From the IMG/VR virus record IMGVR_UViG_3300048996_000092, positions 1 through 57,861 of that record: a DNA stretch of 57,861 nucleotides; one strand, given 5' to 3'. A program made the translations under genes and the position numbers. The notes beneath the pieces were generated by a model. That model was not told where the DNA came from. It saw only the letters and a list, made by a program, of their open reading frames with translations, and did no database searches. Shown here one piece after another: positions 6,756 through 57,508 of this stretch (its first letter is position 1; each line of letters opens with the position of its first letter). The stretch comes from a virus.

Positions 6756-7215
6756 CGGAATACTGGCAACGCTGAAGGCGCTGCCACCGCACATTGTTTC
6801 AAAGGCCGGCGGTCCGGTACGCGGCGCGCTCCGAAAGGGCGCTGTTGTATTTCAGAAAGCCTACCAAGAGAACATCCGCGCCATCATTGAGGAGCCCAAC
6901 AAAGACGGCAGCACTCCGGACACGTCAGGCACGTTGGTCAAGTCAGTGATCATCAGCCGCGGCAAGTATCGCGCGGGCTTTCAGGGCGAGACGTTCAAGG
7001 TGCGAATCAAGCGCGGCGTAAAGGCGCCGAACGGCCAGAGCGTCAACAAATACGCCGGTGTTCTGGAGTTTGGCTATGAGGGGGTGCCGGCGAAGGCGCC
7101 GATGCGCAAAGCATACGAAGCAAACAAGGCCGCGGCGCTCGCGGTGATTGTCAGTGAAATGAAGAAGCGCACCGATGCAGCTGCGCGTAAGGCTCGCAAA
7201 CAGGGGTTCAAATGA
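6727..7215 (+). CDS. Tail completion protein, HK97 gp10 family
   Basis: This 162-residue, basic protein fits the HK97-gp10_like family: an N-terminal GLDGILATLKALPPHI helix, a KGAVVFQKAYQENIR helix, the VKSVIISRGKY strand pair, YAGVLEFGYEG and a C-terminal Lys/Arg-rich helix. The family helps finish the tail-to-head joint. The ATG at 6727 is chosen because conserved sequence begins there. It resumes the standard neck-tail gene order after the glycan cassette. Confidence 0.82.
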   Translation: MAAQYVKGLDGILATLKALPPHIVSKAGGPVRGALRKGAVVFQKAYQENIRAIIEEPNKDGSTPDTSGTLVKSVIISRGKYRAGFQGETFKVRIKRGVKAPNGQSVNKYAGVLEFGYEGVPAKAPMRKAYEANKAAALAVIVSEMKKRTDAAARKARKQGFK

Positions 7216-46336: not shown

Positions 46337-46944
46337 TCACCATTGATGAGAACCTGTTGGCGATTTGGTGGATAGCGCTGCCGTCGATGGCGAAGCCTGG
46401 GACCAACGAGGCGGACTTGCTGTGCTCATTGGCTCGCCGGTCGCCTGAGGAATGCGAAATCATCTATCGGTTTCGTTACTACGAAACCAAAGGCGCGTGG
46501 GATGGACTGGATCGAAAGAACTGGTACGACGGCGTTGTAAAGCAGCAGCCAGAGGAAATCATTCCGCACCTGCGCGCTATGTTCGAGAAGCTGTCCGCGT
46601 TAGCCGGGGGGAGTAAGGTGTTTGAGATTGTGCGCGGCGATATGACCATTCCTCAGTTCATAGATGAGTTCGCGAAAATGCCGTTCGTGCACATGAAGAG
46701 CGGCGACGATGCGGAGCGGTGGCTGAAGGAGCACGAGCATCAGCAGCGCGCCCAGACGCCATACCGCGCACCGCTGCCTATGCACTACGCGCCCAACGGC
46801 GGGCACAGGATTGCCTGCCCCATCGAAGTCATTGGAACCAACATCACAGCAGAGCCGGGGGACGTCACGTGCAAGCGATGCGCGAAACACGCCGACGTCG
46901 TGAACTACAGAAACAATTTACGAGACAAACCACCACATGCCTAA
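46333..46944 (+). CDS. Unknown protein, two parts
   Basis: The 203-residue product has an N-terminal RSPEECEIIYRFRYYETKGA and C-terminal YAPNGGHRIACPIEV, VTCKRCAKHADVVNYRNN with a Cys pair. It overlaps the integrase by eight bases. Unknown. Confidence 0.5.
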   Translation: MITIDENLLAIWWIALPSMAKPGTNEADLLCSLARRSPEECEIIYRFRYYETKGAWDGLDRKNWYDGVVKQQPEEIIPHLRAMFEKLSALAGGSKVFEIVRGDMTIPQFIDEFAKMPFVHMKSGDDAERWLKEHEHQQRAQTPYRAPLPMHYAPNGGHRIACPIEVIGTNITAEPGDVTCKRCAKHADVVNYRNNLRDKPPHA

Positions 46945-48202
46945 GCAAGCCAAAAAATTGAGCGCGTTCCACGTGCACCGCCTGAAGAAGACACACGCCG
47001 TCGGCGGCGTCGCAGGTCTGTACCTCCAGGTCCGTGGTCCAAGCGCACGGAGCTGGATACTCAAGGCCCCTATCCATGGGAAGCGACCGAATCTCGGGCT
47101 CGGGTCGTTCCCGGAGATCAGTCTGGAAAAGGCGCGCATGCGTGCAACCGTAATGCGCGAGCAGATCAGGGAAGGAAAAGACCCACGAGACGTTCAGCGG
47201 CAAGCCGCTGATGAGGCGCGTGCGGCTGCAATGTCTTTGATCAAGTTCAAAGAGGCTGCAGAGGATTGCTGGAAGGCCAAGGCGGCGGAGTTCAAGAACG
47301 CCAAACACAAGTTGCAGTGGATTTCTACTCTGCGCCAATACGCCAACCCGCACATCGGCGACATGTACGTGCAGAGCATCGAACGTGCCCACGTCCTGAA
47401 AGCGCTGCAGCCGATTTGGCACACAAAGACTGAGACGGCCGGACGTCTTCGCGGCAGAATTGAAGCGGTCATCGAGTACGTTCATGCGGTGCTGGGAATC
47501 AAAAACCGCGAGAACGCCGCCAAATGGGAAGGGTTAAAACCGTTGCTGCCGTCGCCACGAAAGCTGACGCGGCGAAAGAGAAAGCATATGGCGGCCCTGC
47601 AATGGAAGCGCATGCCTGAGTTCATACCGCTGTTGATCAAACAGGATGGCATGGCGGCACGGTGTGAGGAGTTCGCCATCTTGACCGTTGCGCGCAACAC
47701 CGAAGCGCGCGGCGCCAGCTGGGACGAGATTGATATGGAAGAGGAGGTCTGGAGGGTGTCGGCGCCGCGCATGAAGGAGTCTCTGCCTCACCGGGTTCCG
47801 TTGAGCCCAGCGGCTATGGATCTTCTGCGTGCGCTGCCGCGCTTCGAGGGAACGTCACTACTGTTCCCAGGGCTCGCCGGTAAGCAGCTGTCGGAGAATA
47901 CGTTGGGCAAGGTGGTCAACCGCGTGACGGCGCAAATGCCTGGATCGCCAGAGGCGACGCCGCACGGGTTCAGGTCTGCATTCAAGGACTGGGCGCGTAG
48001 TCAGCCTGGGCACGAGGACGAAGTGTCTGAACTGGCACTTGCCCACGTCAATTCAGACGAGACGCGCGCGGCATACGCGCGAGACGAGCTGATGGAAAAG
48101 CGACGGGTACTGATGAACGACTGGGCGCGCTTTTGCTACGCACCGGTTACTGGCAATGTCGTGCCGTTCCGCAAGGAAGACCGGGCGGTGGCGGCGCTAT
48201 GA
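46937..48202 (+). CDS. P4-type tyrosine integrase
   Basis: The 421-residue enzyme has the DUF4102 N terminus (GGVAGLYLQVRGPSARSWIL), an internal core-binding domain, and catalytic residues: Arg253 (VARNTEARGA), Lys280 (PRMKESLPHRVPL), His343-x-x-Arg346 (TPHGFRSAF), His370 (LALAHVNS) and Tyr380 (RAAYARDEL). It is full length. It should catalyse site-specific integration and, with a partner, excision. The gene sits inside an operon, overlapping both neighbours, not beside an obvious attachment site. Confidence 0.92.
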   Translation: MPKQAKKLSAFHVHRLKKTHAVGGVAGLYLQVRGPSARSWILKAPIHGKRPNLGLGSFPEISLEKARMRATVMREQIREGKDPRDVQRQAADEARAAAMSLIKFKEAAEDCWKAKAAEFKNAKHKLQWISTLRQYANPHIGDMYVQSIERAHVLKALQPIWHTKTETAGRLRGRIEAVIEYVHAVLGIKNRENAAKWEGLKPLLPSPRKLTRRKRKHMAALQWKRMPEFIPLLIKQDGMAARCEEFAILTVARNTEARGASWDEIDMEEEVWRVSAPRMKESLPHRVPLSPAAMDLLRALPRFEGTSLLFPGLAGKQLSENTLGKVVNRVTAQMPGSPEATPHGFRSAFKDWARSQPGHEDEVSELALAHVNSDETRAAYARDELMEKRRVLMNDWARFCYAPVTGNVVPFRKEDRAVAAL

Positions 48203-48875: not shown

Positions 48876-48915
48876 TGACGGCGCCGGAGCCGCGATGACC
48901 AGTGGGAGGCATCTA

Positions 48916-49446
48916 ATGAGAAGCACGAAATGCAAGCCGAGCCCATGCCCACAATGCCGCGCTAATCTTGATGTTGCCACCAGCGCTGTGGGAACCAAGG
49001 CATACCCCGGCGCAGTCAGTGTCTGTCTGTATTGCGGCCACATGCTGGAACTCGGCGAAGGGCTGGTGATCCGGTCGCTTGCGCCTGAGAAATTTCTGAA
49101 GCTTGAGCACGAGCAGCAACTGTACCTTGGCGTGGTGCGCGAACAGGTCATGAAAGACATCGCGGAAAAGAAAGCCGCCGCGGCGGCGCCGCGTGTCGTT
49201 CACTTACAGCGCGAGCGGTACGACGTGCGGATCGACCGGCAGACGCACTGGGGCAATCCGTTCGTGATAGGCAAGGACGGCAACCGAGAGCAGGTAATTG
49301 CCAAGTACCGCGCGTGGATCATGCAGCCTGACAACGCGCACATGATCGAAATGGCAAAGAAGGAATTGCGCGGCAAGGTTCTTGGCTGCTGGTGCGCGCC
49401 GAAACCGTGTCATGGTGATGTGTTGCTGGAGATTGCCAATGGTTAA
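48916..49446 (+). CDS. Zinc ribbon plus DUF4326-like protein
   Basis: GGGAGGC lies seven bases before ATG 48916. The 176-residue product has CPQCRANLDVATSAVG and VCLYCGHMLELGEG (zinc ribbon), then RYDVRIDRQTHWGNPFVIG and VLGCWCAPKPCHGDVLLE, the DUF4326 pattern. DUF4326 is found in phages and bacteria and has unknown activity. Followed directly by tRNA-Ser. Confidence 0.72.
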   Translation: MRSTKCKPSPCPQCRANLDVATSAVGTKAYPGAVSVCLYCGHMLELGEGLVIRSLAPEKFLKLEHEQQLYLGVVREQVMKDIAEKKAAAAAPRVVHLQRERYDVRIDRQTHWGNPFVIGKDGNREQVIAKYRAWIMQPDNAHMIEMAKKELRGKVLGCWCAPKPCHGDVLLEIANG

Positions 49447-49448
49447 GC

Positions 49449-49538
49449 GGAGGGGTGGCAGAGCGGTCGATTGCACCGGTCTCGAAAACCGGAGCGCTCG
49501 AAAGGGCGCCGCGAGTTCGAATCTCGCCCCCTCCGCCA
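49449..49538 (+). tRNA. tRNA-Ser (anticodon CGA)
   Basis: Acceptor GGAGGGG pairs with CCCCTCC, discriminator G and encoded CCA follow. The anticodon arm CCGGT-CTCGAAA-ACCGG gives CGA (reads UCG). There is a long variable arm and a T arm GCGAG-TTCGAAT-CTCGC. The tRNA lies within the gene run after the DUF4326-like gene, 1.2 kb after the integrase. Confidence 0.95.
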
Positions 49539-52171: not shown

Positions 52172-52702
52172 ATGCGTACTATCACAGTGATTGTGCTGAC
52201 CATGATTTTCGCGGCGCACGCGAACGCAGAGGGAGCGTTTCGAATTGGCATCGGCGGCGGACAGGCAACCATCGAGGCCGATGATCTGGACCTGAAAGGC
52301 AGCGCAACTGCCTGGGAAGTATTCGGCGGCTATGAGGCCAACGAGAACTGGGCCGTGGAGATCGGCTACATCGACGGCGGCAGCGCAGACGACAGTATCG
52401 GCAACGTCACAGTCGAGGCCGACACGACCACCTTTGTCGCCTCAGTGATCGGGTCCCTGTGGGTCGGCGATAACTTCAGCGTCTACGCGCGCGCGGGGCT
52501 GATGCACTGGGAGTCTGAAGAGGCGCTGAAGGTGAGCGGCGTAACCGTCGCCACCGATGACTTGGACGGTGACGATCCATTCTTCGGCGCCGGTGGCGCT
52601 CTGCTGGTGGATGGCGCATTGCTCAGGCTGGAGTATCGGTTGGCGAATCTTGACGACACCGACCTGTCACTCATTTCACTGGCGCTAGCGTGGAGGTTCT
52701 GA
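52172..52702 (+). CDS. Outer-membrane beta-barrel protein
   Basis: The 176-residue protein has a signal peptide (RTITVIVLTMIFAAHANA, cut near residue 19), then FRIGIGGGQATIEADDL, TAWEVFGGYEANENWAVEIG, SVYARAGLMHWES, LRLEYRLANLDDTD and the terminal Phe (SLISLALAWRF), the pattern of an eight-strand OmpA/OmpX-like barrel. Phage morons of this type, such as Lom, alter the host surface in lysogens. The gene stands alone after the gap, so it likely has its own promoter. Confidence 0.8.
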   Translation: MRTITVIVLTMIFAAHANAEGAFRIGIGGGQATIEADDLDLKGSATAWEVFGGYEANENWAVEIGYIDGGSADDSIGNVTVEADTTTFVASVIGSLWVGDNFSVYARAGLMHWESEEALKVSGVTVATDDLDGDDPFFGAGGALLVDGALLRLEYRLANLDDTDLSLISLALAWRF

Positions 52703-52979: not shown

Positions 52980-53059
52980 GCCGAGGATAGGAGAGGGGAG
53001 GGCCGTGCGTGCCTGCCGTGCCCTCCATCCCTGGTGTTACCCCGCGAAGCGCCGCGGTG

Positions 53060-53200
53060 ACGATGACGATTAATAACCCGGTGTCTTAGCCACCTAAACG
53101 ACTTCCCCATAAAGTTTGGTGGAGGGGAAGACGGGATTCGAACCCGTGTTTCCGAGTGATCATATGTGCTTTGCTTCGCGCCTTACGCTGACGATTGTTA
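53060..53200 (-). ncRNA. Circularly permuted tRNA/tmRNA-like RNA (3' half before 5' half)
   Basis: On the - strand, a T arm (ACGGG-TTCGAAT-CCCGT, 53147-53131) is followed by an acceptor 3' strand CTTCCCC (53130-53124), TCCACCA, a short spacer, and then GGGGAAG (53108-53102), the exact 7-base partner. Next come TC and a canonical D arm: GTTT, loop AGGTGGCTA, AGAC. Then CCGGG (53081-53077) pairs with CTCGG (53156-53152), the anticodon-stem position, four bases before the T arm. The helix can extend to 11 positions with one mismatch. A complete cloverleaf is thus encoded in reversed half order. The conserved tmRNA 5' motif and a tag reading frame are not found. Identity (two-piece tmRNA-like, permuted tRNA, or att-derived element) is unresolved. 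Confidence 0.55.
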
Positions 53201-53249
53201 GGTGATACGCAGACGAGGACTATCACTCTGACAATGACGACAACGCTAC

Positions 53250-54023
53250 CTAACTCTGTTTCAGCGGCTCCAGCAGTAGCGGCACGAGAATCGCCGCGAC
53301 TGAGCCTTTCACAACCTCTGTGTCATTCGCGCGCGTTCGCGCCTGTTTCACTTCAACCAGCAGCTCGTCGATCAGCTTAAGCGCTTCCGCTTTCTGTGAC
53401 GACGTTGCCGCGCCGCTGCGCTTAACGGTGGTGAATTTGCCGACCACCGCATCACGCTGAATGGCTTGAACCTGTGCAGGATGCTTCTCGGTCGCGGGCG
53501 ACATCACGACCGGGACAACCTGCTTTTCAGTCTTGGTCGTCTCTTCCGCGTACTTCGTGACATAGATGTGCGCGCCGACAGCTGCCGCCAGTTCCCAATG
53601 CTTGGTTGCGTCGAGCGTGGGGATCTCCGCGTAGAGTGCGCGCAGCTTGGTTATCCGCGCCTCAAGGCCCATCAGTTCGTCCACCGGCAGTCCGGCCAGA
53701 AGTTCCTTGCCGCGCCACATAACAGTGCCCGTTGCCACGCGGTTGGTCGCATTCTTCTGGAACTGCAAATCCTCGGCGCGGCCGAATATCTGAAGCGCGT
53801 ATTCCAGGGTGTCGAATACCGTGGTGGTAACCGGCTTCTCCTCGCGCGCCATGTCTTCAATATTTTGGTTTGCTGGACTGTCTTCGATCATTGACAGGCT
53901 CTTGCTGTGGCCGTCGAAGAAGTGGGAGACGTTCTTGAATTTCTTCAGCGTGTCCTCGTACAGCTGGTTCCATGCGCCGGTCGGCGTTTTTTCCGCGGCA
54001 AGCAACTCATGCAGCTTGGCCAT
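53250..54023 (-). CDS. DUF7873-like conserved phage protein
   Basis: The 257-residue protein opens AKLHELLAAEKTPTGAWNQL and has FDTLEYALQIFGRAEDLQFQ, MGLEARITKLRALYAEIPTL and AHIYVTKYAEETTKTEKQVV, matching a family I recall from phages and as DUF7873. AAGGAG precedes ATG 54023. Not enzymatic by sequence; a role in DNA or virion biology is unknown. Confidence 0.7.
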   Translation of the reverse strand: MAKLHELLAAEKTPTGAWNQLYEDTLKKFKNVSHFFDGHSKSLSMIEDSPANQNIEDMAREEKPVTTTVFDTLEYALQIFGRAEDLQFQKNATNRVATGTVMWRGKELLAGLPVDELMGLEARITKLRALYAEIPTLDATKHWELAAAVGAHIYVTKYAEETTKTEKQVVPVVMSPATEKHPAQVQAIQRDAVVGKFTTVKRSGAATSSQKAEALKLIDELLVEVKQARTRANDTEVVKGSVAAILVPLLLEPLKQS

Positions 54024-55458
54024 GAACTTCTCCTTTCGGTGCGTGTGGTTGATCAGGTTGTAGAGCCAGCGCGACCGCATTAGGACCGTCGCGCCATGCG
54101 CGCCACAGGTCACGAAGCAGTCGCTTCTCGACGTACCGTTGCGCGCGGCGATGCCAAAGCATCTTGGAGCCGTCAGGAACTTTCTGCTGTTCGAACACCT
54201 TGCGCGCGAGATACAGGTCGCGATACGCGCTCTGCTGCTTGAGAAGTGAGTCGCCTATTACAAACATGATAGATCGTCGCGCGGGCGAGTAACCCATGAT
54301 GTCGCCCTTCGCCTTCGACTTGCACGCGGCCTTGCCATCGACGACGTGCAAACCCATGCGCTTCCAAATCTTGGCCGGGCTGGAATAGTTACCCAGGTCG
54401 CCGCATTCGCCGACTATCTGCGCAAGGCCGAGATCGCCGAATCCATTCACTGCCTCTACCCATGGCCACACCGGCAACTGCTTCGCCAATTTCCGGCATT
54501 TGCGCTCGGCTTCCTTACGTTGCACGGCTAGGCCCGCGCGCACTTCAACTAGGGGCTGCACGTAGAGAGCGAGCTTGGGGTCAACACCACGCCGCTGGAC
54601 GTCACGTAAGTCGAGGTCTCCCCCAAGCTCCGCAGAAGAAGCGATGTCGGCAATAAGGACGTGGTTGTCACTATCAACGGGGCCTTCATCGCTTGAACGG
54701 ACGGGCGCGGCGGCAGATCCTATCTGGGAATCCGCGTCGTTCGGGCCGCACGCGCCCTGTGAAACCGCGATGTCGGCACGCTCGCCTTGGCGGTCGACAT
54801 GGACTTGGCCTTCATCGCTAGAAAGGTCGGGCGCAACGACAGGGCTTTCGCGGGAATCAGCGGATTTTTGGTCGTCAGCGCCCTTCAATTTGAGTGCGCC
54901 TACATAGCGGCGCTCGATTGACTTGATGACGAGCGTCATTGACTTTTCCGGTCGGTGGAAGTCCTGACGGCGCCGGTGCGCCTCTCGAATCAAGTGGCAT
55001 AGGTCGGAGAGGGAAGGCATTCCAGTTTCGGGCGACAGACCGACACAGCCCTTCCCCTCCGATGGAAGATCAGCGCAAGCGCGCAACGGTGTCGCGGGCT
55101 GCGGTTCCAGAATGGCACGCTCGGCTGATGGAAAGTTGGACGAGTCAGGCACCACGTTGCTGGGCGTCACGTCATTCGAGGCCTGATCGTCCGATGAAAC
55201 GTCAGCACCAGCGCGCATGGCGGTCGCGGACTGCAGTTCCAATATGGCGCGCTGTGCTGATGGAAGGTCGGGCGACGAATCAGGCAGGACCCTGTTGGGC
55301 GTCACCGAGGGTGTGGCCTGATCGTCCGTAGAGACAGAAGGGCGCGGCAGTCGCGTTCGGGATAGCACCGTCTCATGGGCCTTGCCCTTCTTTGATTGGC
55401 GCCGAGCCTTGACATTGCCGTTCTGGGCGTCAAGCACATGCGGGTCTCGACTCAGCAT
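54007..55458 (-). CDS. Domesticated IS110-type transposase_20 domain protein
   Basis: The 483-residue protein has a long disordered N-terminal half with repeats (two blocks of a PDSS..PSA(Q/E)RAILE...ADxxS type, and S-rich acidic ones), then from about residue 330 a Tnp_20-like domain: VWPWVEAVNGFGDLGLAQIV, ECGDLGNYSSPAKIWKRMGL, GDIMGYSPARRSIMFVIGDS. The IS110 N-terminal DEDD/RuvC nuclease part is absent and no terminal inverted repeats or left/right ends flank it. GAGGAG precedes ATG 55458. It looks like a DNA-binding remnant put to phage use, but catalysis cannot be ruled out. Confidence 0.72.
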   Translation of the reverse strand: MLSRDPHVLDAQNGNVKARRQSKKGKAHETVLSRTRLPRPSVSTDDQATPSVTPNRVLPDSSPDLPSAQRAILELQSATAMRAGADVSSDDQASNDVTPSNVVPDSSNFPSAERAILEPQPATPLRACADLPSEGKGCVGLSPETGMPSLSDLCHLIREAHRRRQDFHRPEKSMTLVIKSIERRYVGALKLKGADDQKSADSRESPVVAPDLSSDEGQVHVDRQGERADIAVSQGACGPNDADSQIGSAAAPVRSSDEGPVDSDNHVLIADIASSAELGGDLDLRDVQRRGVDPKLALYVQPLVEVRAGLAVQRKEAERKCRKLAKQLPVWPWVEAVNGFGDLGLAQIVGECGDLGNYSSPAKIWKRMGLHVVDGKAACKSKAKGDIMGYSPARRSIMFVIGDSLLKQQSAYRDLYLARKVFEQQKVPDGSKMLWHRRAQRYVEKRLLRDLWRAWRDGPNAVALALQPDQPHAPKGEVHGQAA

Positions 55459-56489: not shown

Positions 56490-57296
56490 TCACCGGTTTT
56501 GGGTTGTGGGGATTTGAATGAACGGCGTGGCGCCGCCCATCATGTACTGCGGCATTTTTCCGTCCCACCTTTGCACGGCTTCCCATTCGATCAGCTTGGC
56601 GTTCTGTTCCAGCGCGTTGGCGCGGATGCGGATGGACTCTGCGTCCGCCTTCGCGTTGAGGATCGTCGCCTTGGCGTTTCCCGAAGCTGTCTCAACCTTC
56701 TGATTGGCCTGCTCGCGGATTTGCACCGTGTGGTTCTGTTCCTCGATCGCCTTCTGCTGCGCGATCACCTTGGCCTCTACGGCGTGCTCGAACTCGGGCG
56801 TGTAGTCGATGTTTGTCAGCTGGAAGCCGGTGACGATGACGTTGCGCGCGGCGAGCTTCGAGGTTACTTCCGCCTCGATGGCGCGTGACGCCTTGTCGCG
56901 CTGCGCGATGATGTCAACCGCCTCGTGTTGGCCGAACTCACGCTTGATGCTCTCGTGCAGCACCTGCCCGACCAGCTTTGCCGCCCACTCCACTCCGACC
57001 GTTTGAAAGACCATGTGCGCCCGCGTCGGATCAAGGCGGTACGTCAGCGTGAACAGCACCTTGGCCTGCTGCACATCGCGCGTGTACGCGGTGGATTCGC
57101 CATCCCACTTCTGCACGCGCGTATCCATCTGGATGACGTCAGACGTAAAGGGGTTGTACCAATACAGGCCCTCCGGCAGTGATTCAGACATCACCTTGCC
57201 GAAGCGTGTTTCAACGCCGCGGTGGCCGGTGTCGACTGTCTGCCAGCCGCAGCCGCTTAGAGTCATGATCGCCGCGAACAACAGAATGCTTTTCAT
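56490..57296 (-). CDS. SPFH/prohibitin-like lipoprotein
   Basis: The 268-residue protein starts KSILLFAAIMTLSGC with a lipobox, then the SPFH domain: VDTGHRGVETRFGKVMSESL, EGLYWYNPFTSDVIQMDTRV, VLFTLTYRLDP, ALKEQ-type coiled region IAQQKAIEEQNHTVQIREQA, and a C-terminal helix with MPQYMMGGATPF. SPFH proteins make ring or cage assemblies on membranes. GGAG precedes ATG 57296. A phage-encoded lipid-anchored SPFH protein is unusual. Confidence 0.8.
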   Translation of the reverse strand: MKSILLFAAIMTLSGCGWQTVDTGHRGVETRFGKVMSESLPEGLYWYNPFTSDVIQMDTRVQKWDGESTAYTRDVQQAKVLFTLTYRLDPTRAHMVFQTVGVEWAAKLVGQVLHESIKREFGQHEAVDIIAQRDKASRAIEAEVTSKLAARNVIVTGFQLTNIDYTPEFEHAVEAKVIAQQKAIEEQNHTVQIREQANQKVETASGNAKATILNAKADAESIRIRANALEQNAKLIEWEAVQRWDGKMPQYMMGGATPFIQIPTTQNR

Positions 57297-57508
57297 TTCT
57301 TCAACTCCTGGGTTTCCCTGGTGACGTGCCACAAAACTGCGCGACCTGATGCGGAGAAAAGCGCCAGCGGCCAAATCGCGCACAGAAGTAGGCGCCGCGG
57401 GAACTTCGAGAACGTTCTGGCGAAAGCGAGGTCCGACAGCGCGACCAACAGAAAGCCCATCGCGCCAAGCGACCAGACCATGAGGCTGAAGACAAACAAT
57501 CGGATCAT
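57293..57508 (-). CDS. Small two-helix membrane protein
   Basis: The 71-residue product (ATG 57508) has two membrane helices, LFVFSLMVWSLGAMGFLLVA and RLLLCAIWPLALFSASGR. It overlaps the SPFH gene by four bases (ATGA) and lies directly upstream, so it may be a partner. Confidence 0.6.
   Translation of the reverse strand: MIRLFVFSLMVWSLGAMGFLLVALSDLAFARTFSKFPRRLLLCAIWPLALFSASGRAVLWHVTRETQELKK

What the first reader, a model, noticed from the sequence alone, without database searches (positions are those of the whole stretch)
53060..53200. Circularly permuted tRNA/tmRNA-like RNA gene
On the - strand a T arm and acceptor 3' strand with CCA come first, then after a short spacer the exact complementary 5' acceptor strand, a canonical D arm and the 5' part of an anticodon-like stem that pairs upstream of the T arm. 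Every helix of a cloverleaf is present with halves swapped, and the central helix extends to about 11 positions like P2 of tmRNA. In bacteria only two-piece tmRNAs are known to be permuted, yet the tmRNA 5' consensus and tag frame are missing, so this may be a new permuted RNA type, made into two pieces by RNase P/Z. A further possible 8-bp pairing (GCTTCGCG/CGCGAAGC, about 53042-53049 and 53173-53180) ties the outer regions together.
Basis: partly seen in the sequence, partly recalled or inferred. Interest (0 to 1): 0.87.

Follow-up and report, generated by a model that had tools for sequence, protein, structure and literature searches.

The report
Permuted tRNA-mimic RNA beside DUF7873
The phage carries a real, widely conserved RNA gene that folds into a tRNA-like shape with its halves in swapped order; it belongs to an apparently uncatalogued family of bacterial and phage RNAs that resemble Ro60-binding Y RNAs but travel with a different, uncharacterised protein (DUF7873), which they probably bind through repeats spaced six nucleotides apart.

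Summary
On the minus strand (53156-53077) a T arm, a 7-bp acceptor stem with CCA, a D arm and an anticodon-like stem occur in permuted order, tied by an outer helix. It is not a chance fold or an att relic. The RNA lies just downstream of a DUF7873 gene, and nearly every DUF7873 locus examined, in phages and in actinobacterial genomes (at least 528 stretches), has one or two such units downstream, with overwhelming covariation.

But this is not an ordinary Y RNA. Ro60 is absent from the window, from 15 of 30 bacterial genomes and 6 of 7 phage isolates searched. Where Ro60 is present it has its own Y RNAs, with a motif seen in 7 of 8 such loci and 0 of 223 DUF7873 RNAs. DUF7873 RNAs instead carry 6-nt periodic repeats (in the window NNNGTN seven times).

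Best reading: a Ro60-independent, Y-RNA-like RNP in which DUF7873 subunits bind the hexamers and the tRNA-like arm engages a tRNA-handling enzyme. The RNA family is well supported; protein binding and function are inferred. Two-piece processing remains open.

The parts
53250..54029 (-). DUF7873 gene, likely protein partner of the RNA, immediately upstream
   Evidence: Pfam PF25283, 209 bits, 1.2e-61; permuted units follow it in nearly all relatives
53248..53254 (-). 5' arm (GTTAGGT) of the stem closing the hexamer-repeat loop; overlaps the DUF7873 stop codon
   Evidence: sequence; similar stems visible in most close relatives, matched-vs-mismatched test not significant
53204..53247 (-). 44-nt loop with seven hexamers NNNGTN, putative protein-binding repeats
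   Evidence: GT at the same phase in 7/7; lag-6 identity 22/38, p 3.5e-4 against first-order shuffles; period 6 in relatives
53197..53203 (-). 3' arm (ACCTAAC) of the stem closing the hexamer-repeat loop
53173..53180 (-). outer helix, 5' strand CGCGAAGC
   Evidence: pairs with 53050-53043; in nine relatives own partners score 10.1 on average, foreign partners 6.5
53152..53156 (-). anticodon-like stem, 3' strand CTCGG (positions 39-43)
53131..53147 (-). T arm ACGGG-TTCGAAT-CCCGT (49-65)
   Evidence: T stem 100% paired with changes on both sides across 40 units
53124..53130 (-). acceptor stem, 3' strand CTTCCCC (66-72)
   Evidence: 100% paired across 40 units, two-sided changes at all 7 pairs
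53120..53123 (-). discriminator T73 and CCA74-76
   Evidence: CCA conserved at this place in window-type viral units
53102..53108 (-). acceptor stem, 5' strand GGGGAAG (1-7)
53083..53099 (-). D arm GTTT-AGGTGGCTA-AGAC (10-25) with G18G19
53077..53081 (-). anticodon-like stem, 5' strand CCGGG (27-31)
53056..53076 (-). short segment after the tRNA-like unit with further CGT hexamers (AATCGT CATCGT)
   Evidence: sequence; lag-6 excess after unit 1 in the window clade
53043..53050 (-). outer helix, 3' strand GCTTCGCG
52997..53026 (-). 3' hairpin GGAGGGC-ACGGCAGGCACGCACG-GCCCTCC
   Evidence: loop motif kept with covarying stems in L002/L183, L175, L178; chance matches elsewhere lack an upstream unit

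Best explanation
The feature is the noncoding RNA of a two-part cassette, DUF7873 plus a YrlA-type (circularly permuted) tRNA-mimic RNA, which makes a Y-RNA-like ribonucleoprotein that does not use Ro60. Shown here by sequence comparison: the permuted cloverleaf, its outer helix, its coupling to DUF7873, its separateness from Ro60-linked Y RNAs, and the 6-nt periodic repeats. Inferred: DUF7873 subunits each bind one hexamer and coat the repeat-bearing loop or flanks, taking the place Ro60 has on ordinary Y RNAs. Inferred with less support (about one in three): the tRNA-like arm docks or baits a tRNA-handling enzyme, by analogy with YrlA, which tethers PNPase to Rsr, or as a decoy for nucleases that cut tRNA.
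For: Units follow DUF7873 in 80/80 bacterial and 68/77 viral loci and 61/64 further viral loci. Covariation. Same arm order as YrlA and a full-length match of 39.2 bits in a relative. Ro60 absent in half of the bacterial genomes and 6 of 7 phage isolates with DUF7873; separate Ro60-linked units in the same genomes; Ro60-type motif 7/8 against 0/223. Period-6 repeats in four groups with different motifs, lag 6 best in 91/152 segments against 78/423 controls, none in Ro60-linked RNAs. No conserved neighbours, so the pair moves alone.
Against: No transcript or binding data. DUF7873 is slightly acidic overall (median pI 6.2) and matches no known RNA-binding fold. The window unit itself scores only 18.7 bits with YrlA (gathering 69). 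Some viral loci show no unit near DUF7873 even with the model, e.g. L172 and L187. Loci were chosen through DUF7873, so the coupling is measured from one side only. The function of the tRNA-like arm is analogy.
Confidence: 0.7

Rival explanations
1. The precursor is cut at G1 (RNase P) and after CCA, giving a two-piece RNA held by base pairs with a free CCA end that is charged or engages the translation machinery, in the manner of two-piece tmRNA.
For: CCA at 74-76 in 42/52 distinct loops of window-type viral units against about 0.01 per position elsewhere in the loops; G1 in most units; full 7-bp acceptor stem kept in all 40 units.
Against: Only 20/56 (first) and 5/31 (second) distinct chromosomal loops have CCA, and several loops extend the helix through the CCA. 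No tmRNA by ARAGORN, low Rfam tmRNA_permuted score, and position 70 is C, not the U of the G3-U70 pair that marks alanine tmRNA. CCA may also be inherited from a tRNA ancestor.
Confidence: 0.2
2. The element acts in cis, as a structured 3' region of the DUF7873 mRNA that DUF7873 binds to control its own level; the tRNA-like fold then serves stability or processing.
For: It begins at the stop codon, whose bases lie in the stem that closes the hexamer loop; always on the same strand downstream of the gene; no sigma-70-like promoter between.
Against: Chromosomal RNAs run about 350 nt with two elaborate tRNA-like arms and end in terminator-like hairpins, far more than autoregulation needs; Ro60 and its Y RNAs are a trans-acting precedent.
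Confidence: 0.12
3. Remnant of tandem tRNA genes or an attP copy of a host tRNA end whose halves match by common descent.
For: Tandem identical tRNAs can mimic the pattern: a tRNA-Asn pair scores about 55 bits with the model.
Against: No tRNA flanks the window unit; the outer helix covaries; the arrangement is conserved beside DUF7873 in phages and chromosomes.
Confidence: 0.01

Closest known systems
YrlA, bacterial Y RNA (Rfam RF02553), partner of Rsr/Ro60
   Same: T arm, closed acceptor-like stem, D arm in that order, on a basal stem formed by the RNA ends (PMC8394870); tRNA mimicry
   Different: Partner gene is DUF7873, not Ro60; Ro60-type motif absent (0/223); 6-nt repeats instead; often two units per RNA (also seen at Ro60 loci in actinobacteria); CCA often kept in phages
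Permuted (two-piece) tmRNA (Rfam RF04321)
   Same: 3' half before 5' half of a tRNA-like domain, CCA, short segment between; also carried by some phages (PMC9004378)
   Different: No tmRNA called, Rfam score far below gathering, canonical D arm with G18G19, no G3-U70; protein-linked repeats instead of a tag message
Circularly permuted tRNA genes of algae and archaea (PMC3978253)
   Same: Swapped halves of a tRNA
   Different: Those are circularised and recut into ordinary tRNA; here the anticodon end opens into a longer RNA and no anticodon loop exists
Cas7-type proteins on crRNA (known from general knowledge)
   Same: A 6-nt period along the RNA, which suggests one subunit per hexamer
   Different: No fold match with the confident model; no CRISPR context; only a lead
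GOLLD and ROOL large RNAs (PMC12286853)
   Same: Structured RNAs linked with phages and near tRNA genes
   Different: No Rfam match here; this family has permuted tRNA domains and a protein gene

Membership tests
YrlA / bacterial Y RNA | T arm - closed acceptor-like stem - D arm order | tested here: met
   Rfam alignments to the window unit and to L013 unit 2
YrlA / bacterial Y RNA | Basal stem joining the two flanks | tested here: met
   Outer helix in nine relatives; helices 6 and 7 in 41 RNAs, 91-94% paired
YrlA / bacterial Y RNA | Rfam gathering score (69 bits) | tested here: not met
   18.7 (window), 39.2 (L013); Ro60-linked units in actinobacteria also miss it, 37-60 bits, so the threshold is a weak criterion
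YrlA / bacterial Y RNA | Encoded beside Ro60 (TROVE) | tested here: not met
   None in the window; absent in 15/30 bacterial genomes and 32/38 viral records
YrlA / bacterial Y RNA | Ro60-type base motif of actinobacterial Y RNAs | tested here: not met
   0/223 DUF7873 RNAs, 7/8 Ro60-linked loci
YrlA / bacterial Y RNA | Binds Rsr and PNPase | not testable with these tools
   needs biochemistry
permuted tmRNA | Recognised by ARAGORN or Rfam tmRNA models | tested here: not met
permuted tmRNA | G3-U70 pair for alanine charging | tested here: not met
   acceptor GGGGAAG/CTTCCCC has C70
permuted tmRNA | Tag reading frame with resume codon | not tested
   no systematic search; ARAGORN reports no tag
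tRNA gene | Continuous cloverleaf with anticodon loop | tested here: not met
DUF7873 (adjacent protein) | Pfam PF25283 score over cut-off 27 | tested here: met
   209 bits

The most novel reading that the evidence does not exclude
A new class of RNP: DUF7873, with no clear match in the structure libraries searched, polymerises on 6-nt RNA repeats to form a ring or filament that displays one or two permuted tRNA arms, which in phages are cut into two-piece, CCA-ended RNAs; bacteria and phages use it in conflict over tRNA.
Probability: 0.2. Interest if true: 0.93.

Novelty: new variant of a known kind. Interest (0 to 1): 0.8.

Why it matters
Bacterial Y RNAs have been understood as partners of Ro60. 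Here is a widespread RNA family with the same tRNA-mimic head but a different protein and a different, periodic base, spread over phages (jumbo phages included) and actinobacterial chromosomes, absent from Rfam, beside a protein of unknown function. It makes a question testable: what does the permuted tRNA head do when Ro60 is out of the picture? It also gives DUF7873 a likely role and shows that some phage 'tRNAs' (a 'tRNA-Sup' in FBKp24) are mis-annotated parts of such RNAs.

Tried and rejected
Att copy or tandem-tRNA relic: rejected (conserved beside DUF7873, covarying outer helix; tandem tRNAs do mimic the model, but none flank the window unit). tmRNA: rejected on ARAGORN and Rfam. Ro60 in the window: none. 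Cas7 likeness came from Foldseek on a poor first model and was gone with the good model, so it is not evidence. PDB sequence search, PHROGs, PADLOC and NCBIfam gave nothing useful for DUF7873. A conserved operon around DUF7873 in bacteria: none. The 16-nt loop motif as an element of its own: of 69 matches elsewhere only six have a stem, four of them the known loci and two without a unit. RNAalifold on nine window-type sequences recovered only the core. The stem closing the hexamer loop is visible in most relatives, but its matched-versus-mismatched test was not significant.

Full report
What is there. On the minus strand, at the stop codon of a DUF7873 gene (53250-54029), a stem GTTAGGT/ACCTAAC encloses a 44-nt loop; then come one strand of an outer helix and a permuted cloverleaf (53156-53077): anticodon-stem 3' strand, T arm, acceptor 3' strand with T73-CCA (15 nt between the acceptor strands), acceptor 5' strand, U8-C9, D arm, anticodon-stem 5' strand; then the second strand of the outer helix and a 30-nt hairpin. 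ARAGORN and Rfam at gathering thresholds find only a tRNA-Ser elsewhere in the window.

Is it more than chance. DUF7873 (PF25283) led to the relatives. A simple detector of permuted units, applied to 157 loci from bacterial genomes and viral contigs, found 232 units of score 19 or more in the 350 nt after DUF7873, against 3 on the opposite strand of the same loci; 80 of 80 bacterial and 68 of 77 viral loci have at least one unit, and 58 bacterial loci have two. A second viral set, nearer to the window, has units in 61 of 64 loci, and a covariance model finds several that the detector missed. The detector demands pairing, so pairing alone would be biased; the controls are the strand contrast, the shuffles and the slid partners. 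On a MAFFT alignment of 41 full RNAs 88.8% of cells pair (70.7% in shuffles, 40-53% when slid), with 400 two-sided changes against 118 in shuffles, and both acceptor helices pair in every sequence. For 40 separate units the covariation score is 0.904 against 0.219 in shuffles.

What kind of RNA. Rfam's YrlA shows the same order, T arm - closed acceptor - D arm, so permutation is not special to tmRNA. YrlA aligns over its whole length to the second unit of L013 (39.2 bits, gathering 69); the window unit gives 18.7. PMC8394870 describes YrlA as a basal stem plus a tRNA-like domain, with Rsr on the stem and PNPase on the domain.

Not a Ro60 RNA. The window has no TROVE gene; 15 of 30 bacterial genomes and 32 of 38 phage or viral records with DUF7873 have none, among them 6 of 7 phage isolates (many viral records are fragments). 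Where Ro60 exists, the unit model finds other units beside it, at places apart from DUF7873 (G014, G016, G027, G028 and others). Those loci carry the motif GGTGCG(C/A)A...TACTT in 7 of 8 cases; 0 of 223 DUF7873 RNAs do. So there are two systems with one kind of head.

The hexamer repeats. The window loop reads AGCGTT GTCGTC ATTGTC AGAGTG ATAGTC CTCGTC TGCGTA: GT stands at the same phase in all seven, lag-6 identity is 22 of 38, p 3.5e-4 against first-order shuffles. Segments 5' of the first unit show excess identity at lag 6 in four groups (also at 12 and 18 in the actinobacterial types), with different motifs by eye (CGTTAT, CTGAAA, AAACTN); the segment after unit 1 shows it in three of the four. 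Sequences within a group are related, so the z-scores are inflated. In dereplicated loci lag 6 is the single best lag in 91 of 152, against 78 of 423 control segments and 11.7% of shuffles; Ro60-linked RNAs show no such period. Inference: one protein subunit per hexamer, DUF7873 being the obvious candidate.

The protein. An alignment of 72 sequences gave a model of mean pLDDT 93.8 with no PDB or BFVD match at E 0.001 or better. A long beta hairpin carries conserved basic residues, and conserved HPAQ lies at its turn; the protein overall is slightly acidic. DUF7873 occurs in 6 of 296 actinobacterial genomes drawn (one of them the centre genome) and in one control genome, Deinobacterium chartae, and in phages of Klebsiella, Rhizobium, Vibrio, Gordonia, Arthrobacter and cyanobacteria. 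Its neighbours in bacteria are not conserved, so the pair seems to move as a unit.

One piece or two. CCA at 74-76 is much enriched, most in window-type phages, which suits cutting by RNase P and 3' processing; but many chromosomal units lack it and some loops extend the helix through it. This is left open.

Mechanism. Most likely the RNA is a scaffold: the repeats bind several DUF7873 subunits, and the tRNA-like arm or arms draw in a tRNA-handling enzyme or act as a decoy. The first step rests on periodicity and linkage, the second on analogy with YrlA; PMC7790460 raises the decoy idea for YrlA itself.

Novelty. No paper in the searched library mentions DUF7873 and none found describes this family. 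The key Y RNA papers are not held, so a prior description cannot be excluded. The head is of a known kind; the partner, the repeats and the independence from Ro60 are what appear new.

Noticed in passing
L006 7018-7097 (Klebsiella phage FBKp24, MW394391.1 46041-46120): The annotated 'tRNA-Sup-TTA' overlaps the second permuted unit (7060-7154) and is probably a mis-annotation.
   Followed up: partly
L253-L260 (actinobacterial Ro60 loci): Ro60-linked Y RNAs score 37-60 bits with YrlA, under Rfam's gathering score of 69, so current annotation would miss them; several loci have two or three units.
   Followed up: partly
window 52997-53026 (-): Hairpin with a 16-nt loop ACGGCAGSYACGCACG kept in L002/L183, L175 and L178 with different stem sequences.
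   Followed up: partly
window 46937-48202 (+) and 49449-49538 (+): Tyrosine integrase with a tRNA-Ser(CGA) about 1.2 kb away, a possible attachment site.
   Followed up: no
window 56490-57308 (-): SPFH/Band 7 protein in the phage; 52172-52702 (+) encodes an OmpA-like beta barrel, 48895-49446 (+) a DUF4326 protein.
   Followed up: no
L261 (G001 C23 344400-345000): Two tandem tRNA-Asn genes score about 55 bits with the permuted-unit model: a caution for anyone scanning genomes with it.
   Followed up: yes
G061, W03 (L008), G053: A few phages carry both Ro60 and DUF7873, in G061 and W03 only about 2 to 7 kb apart.
   Followed up: no
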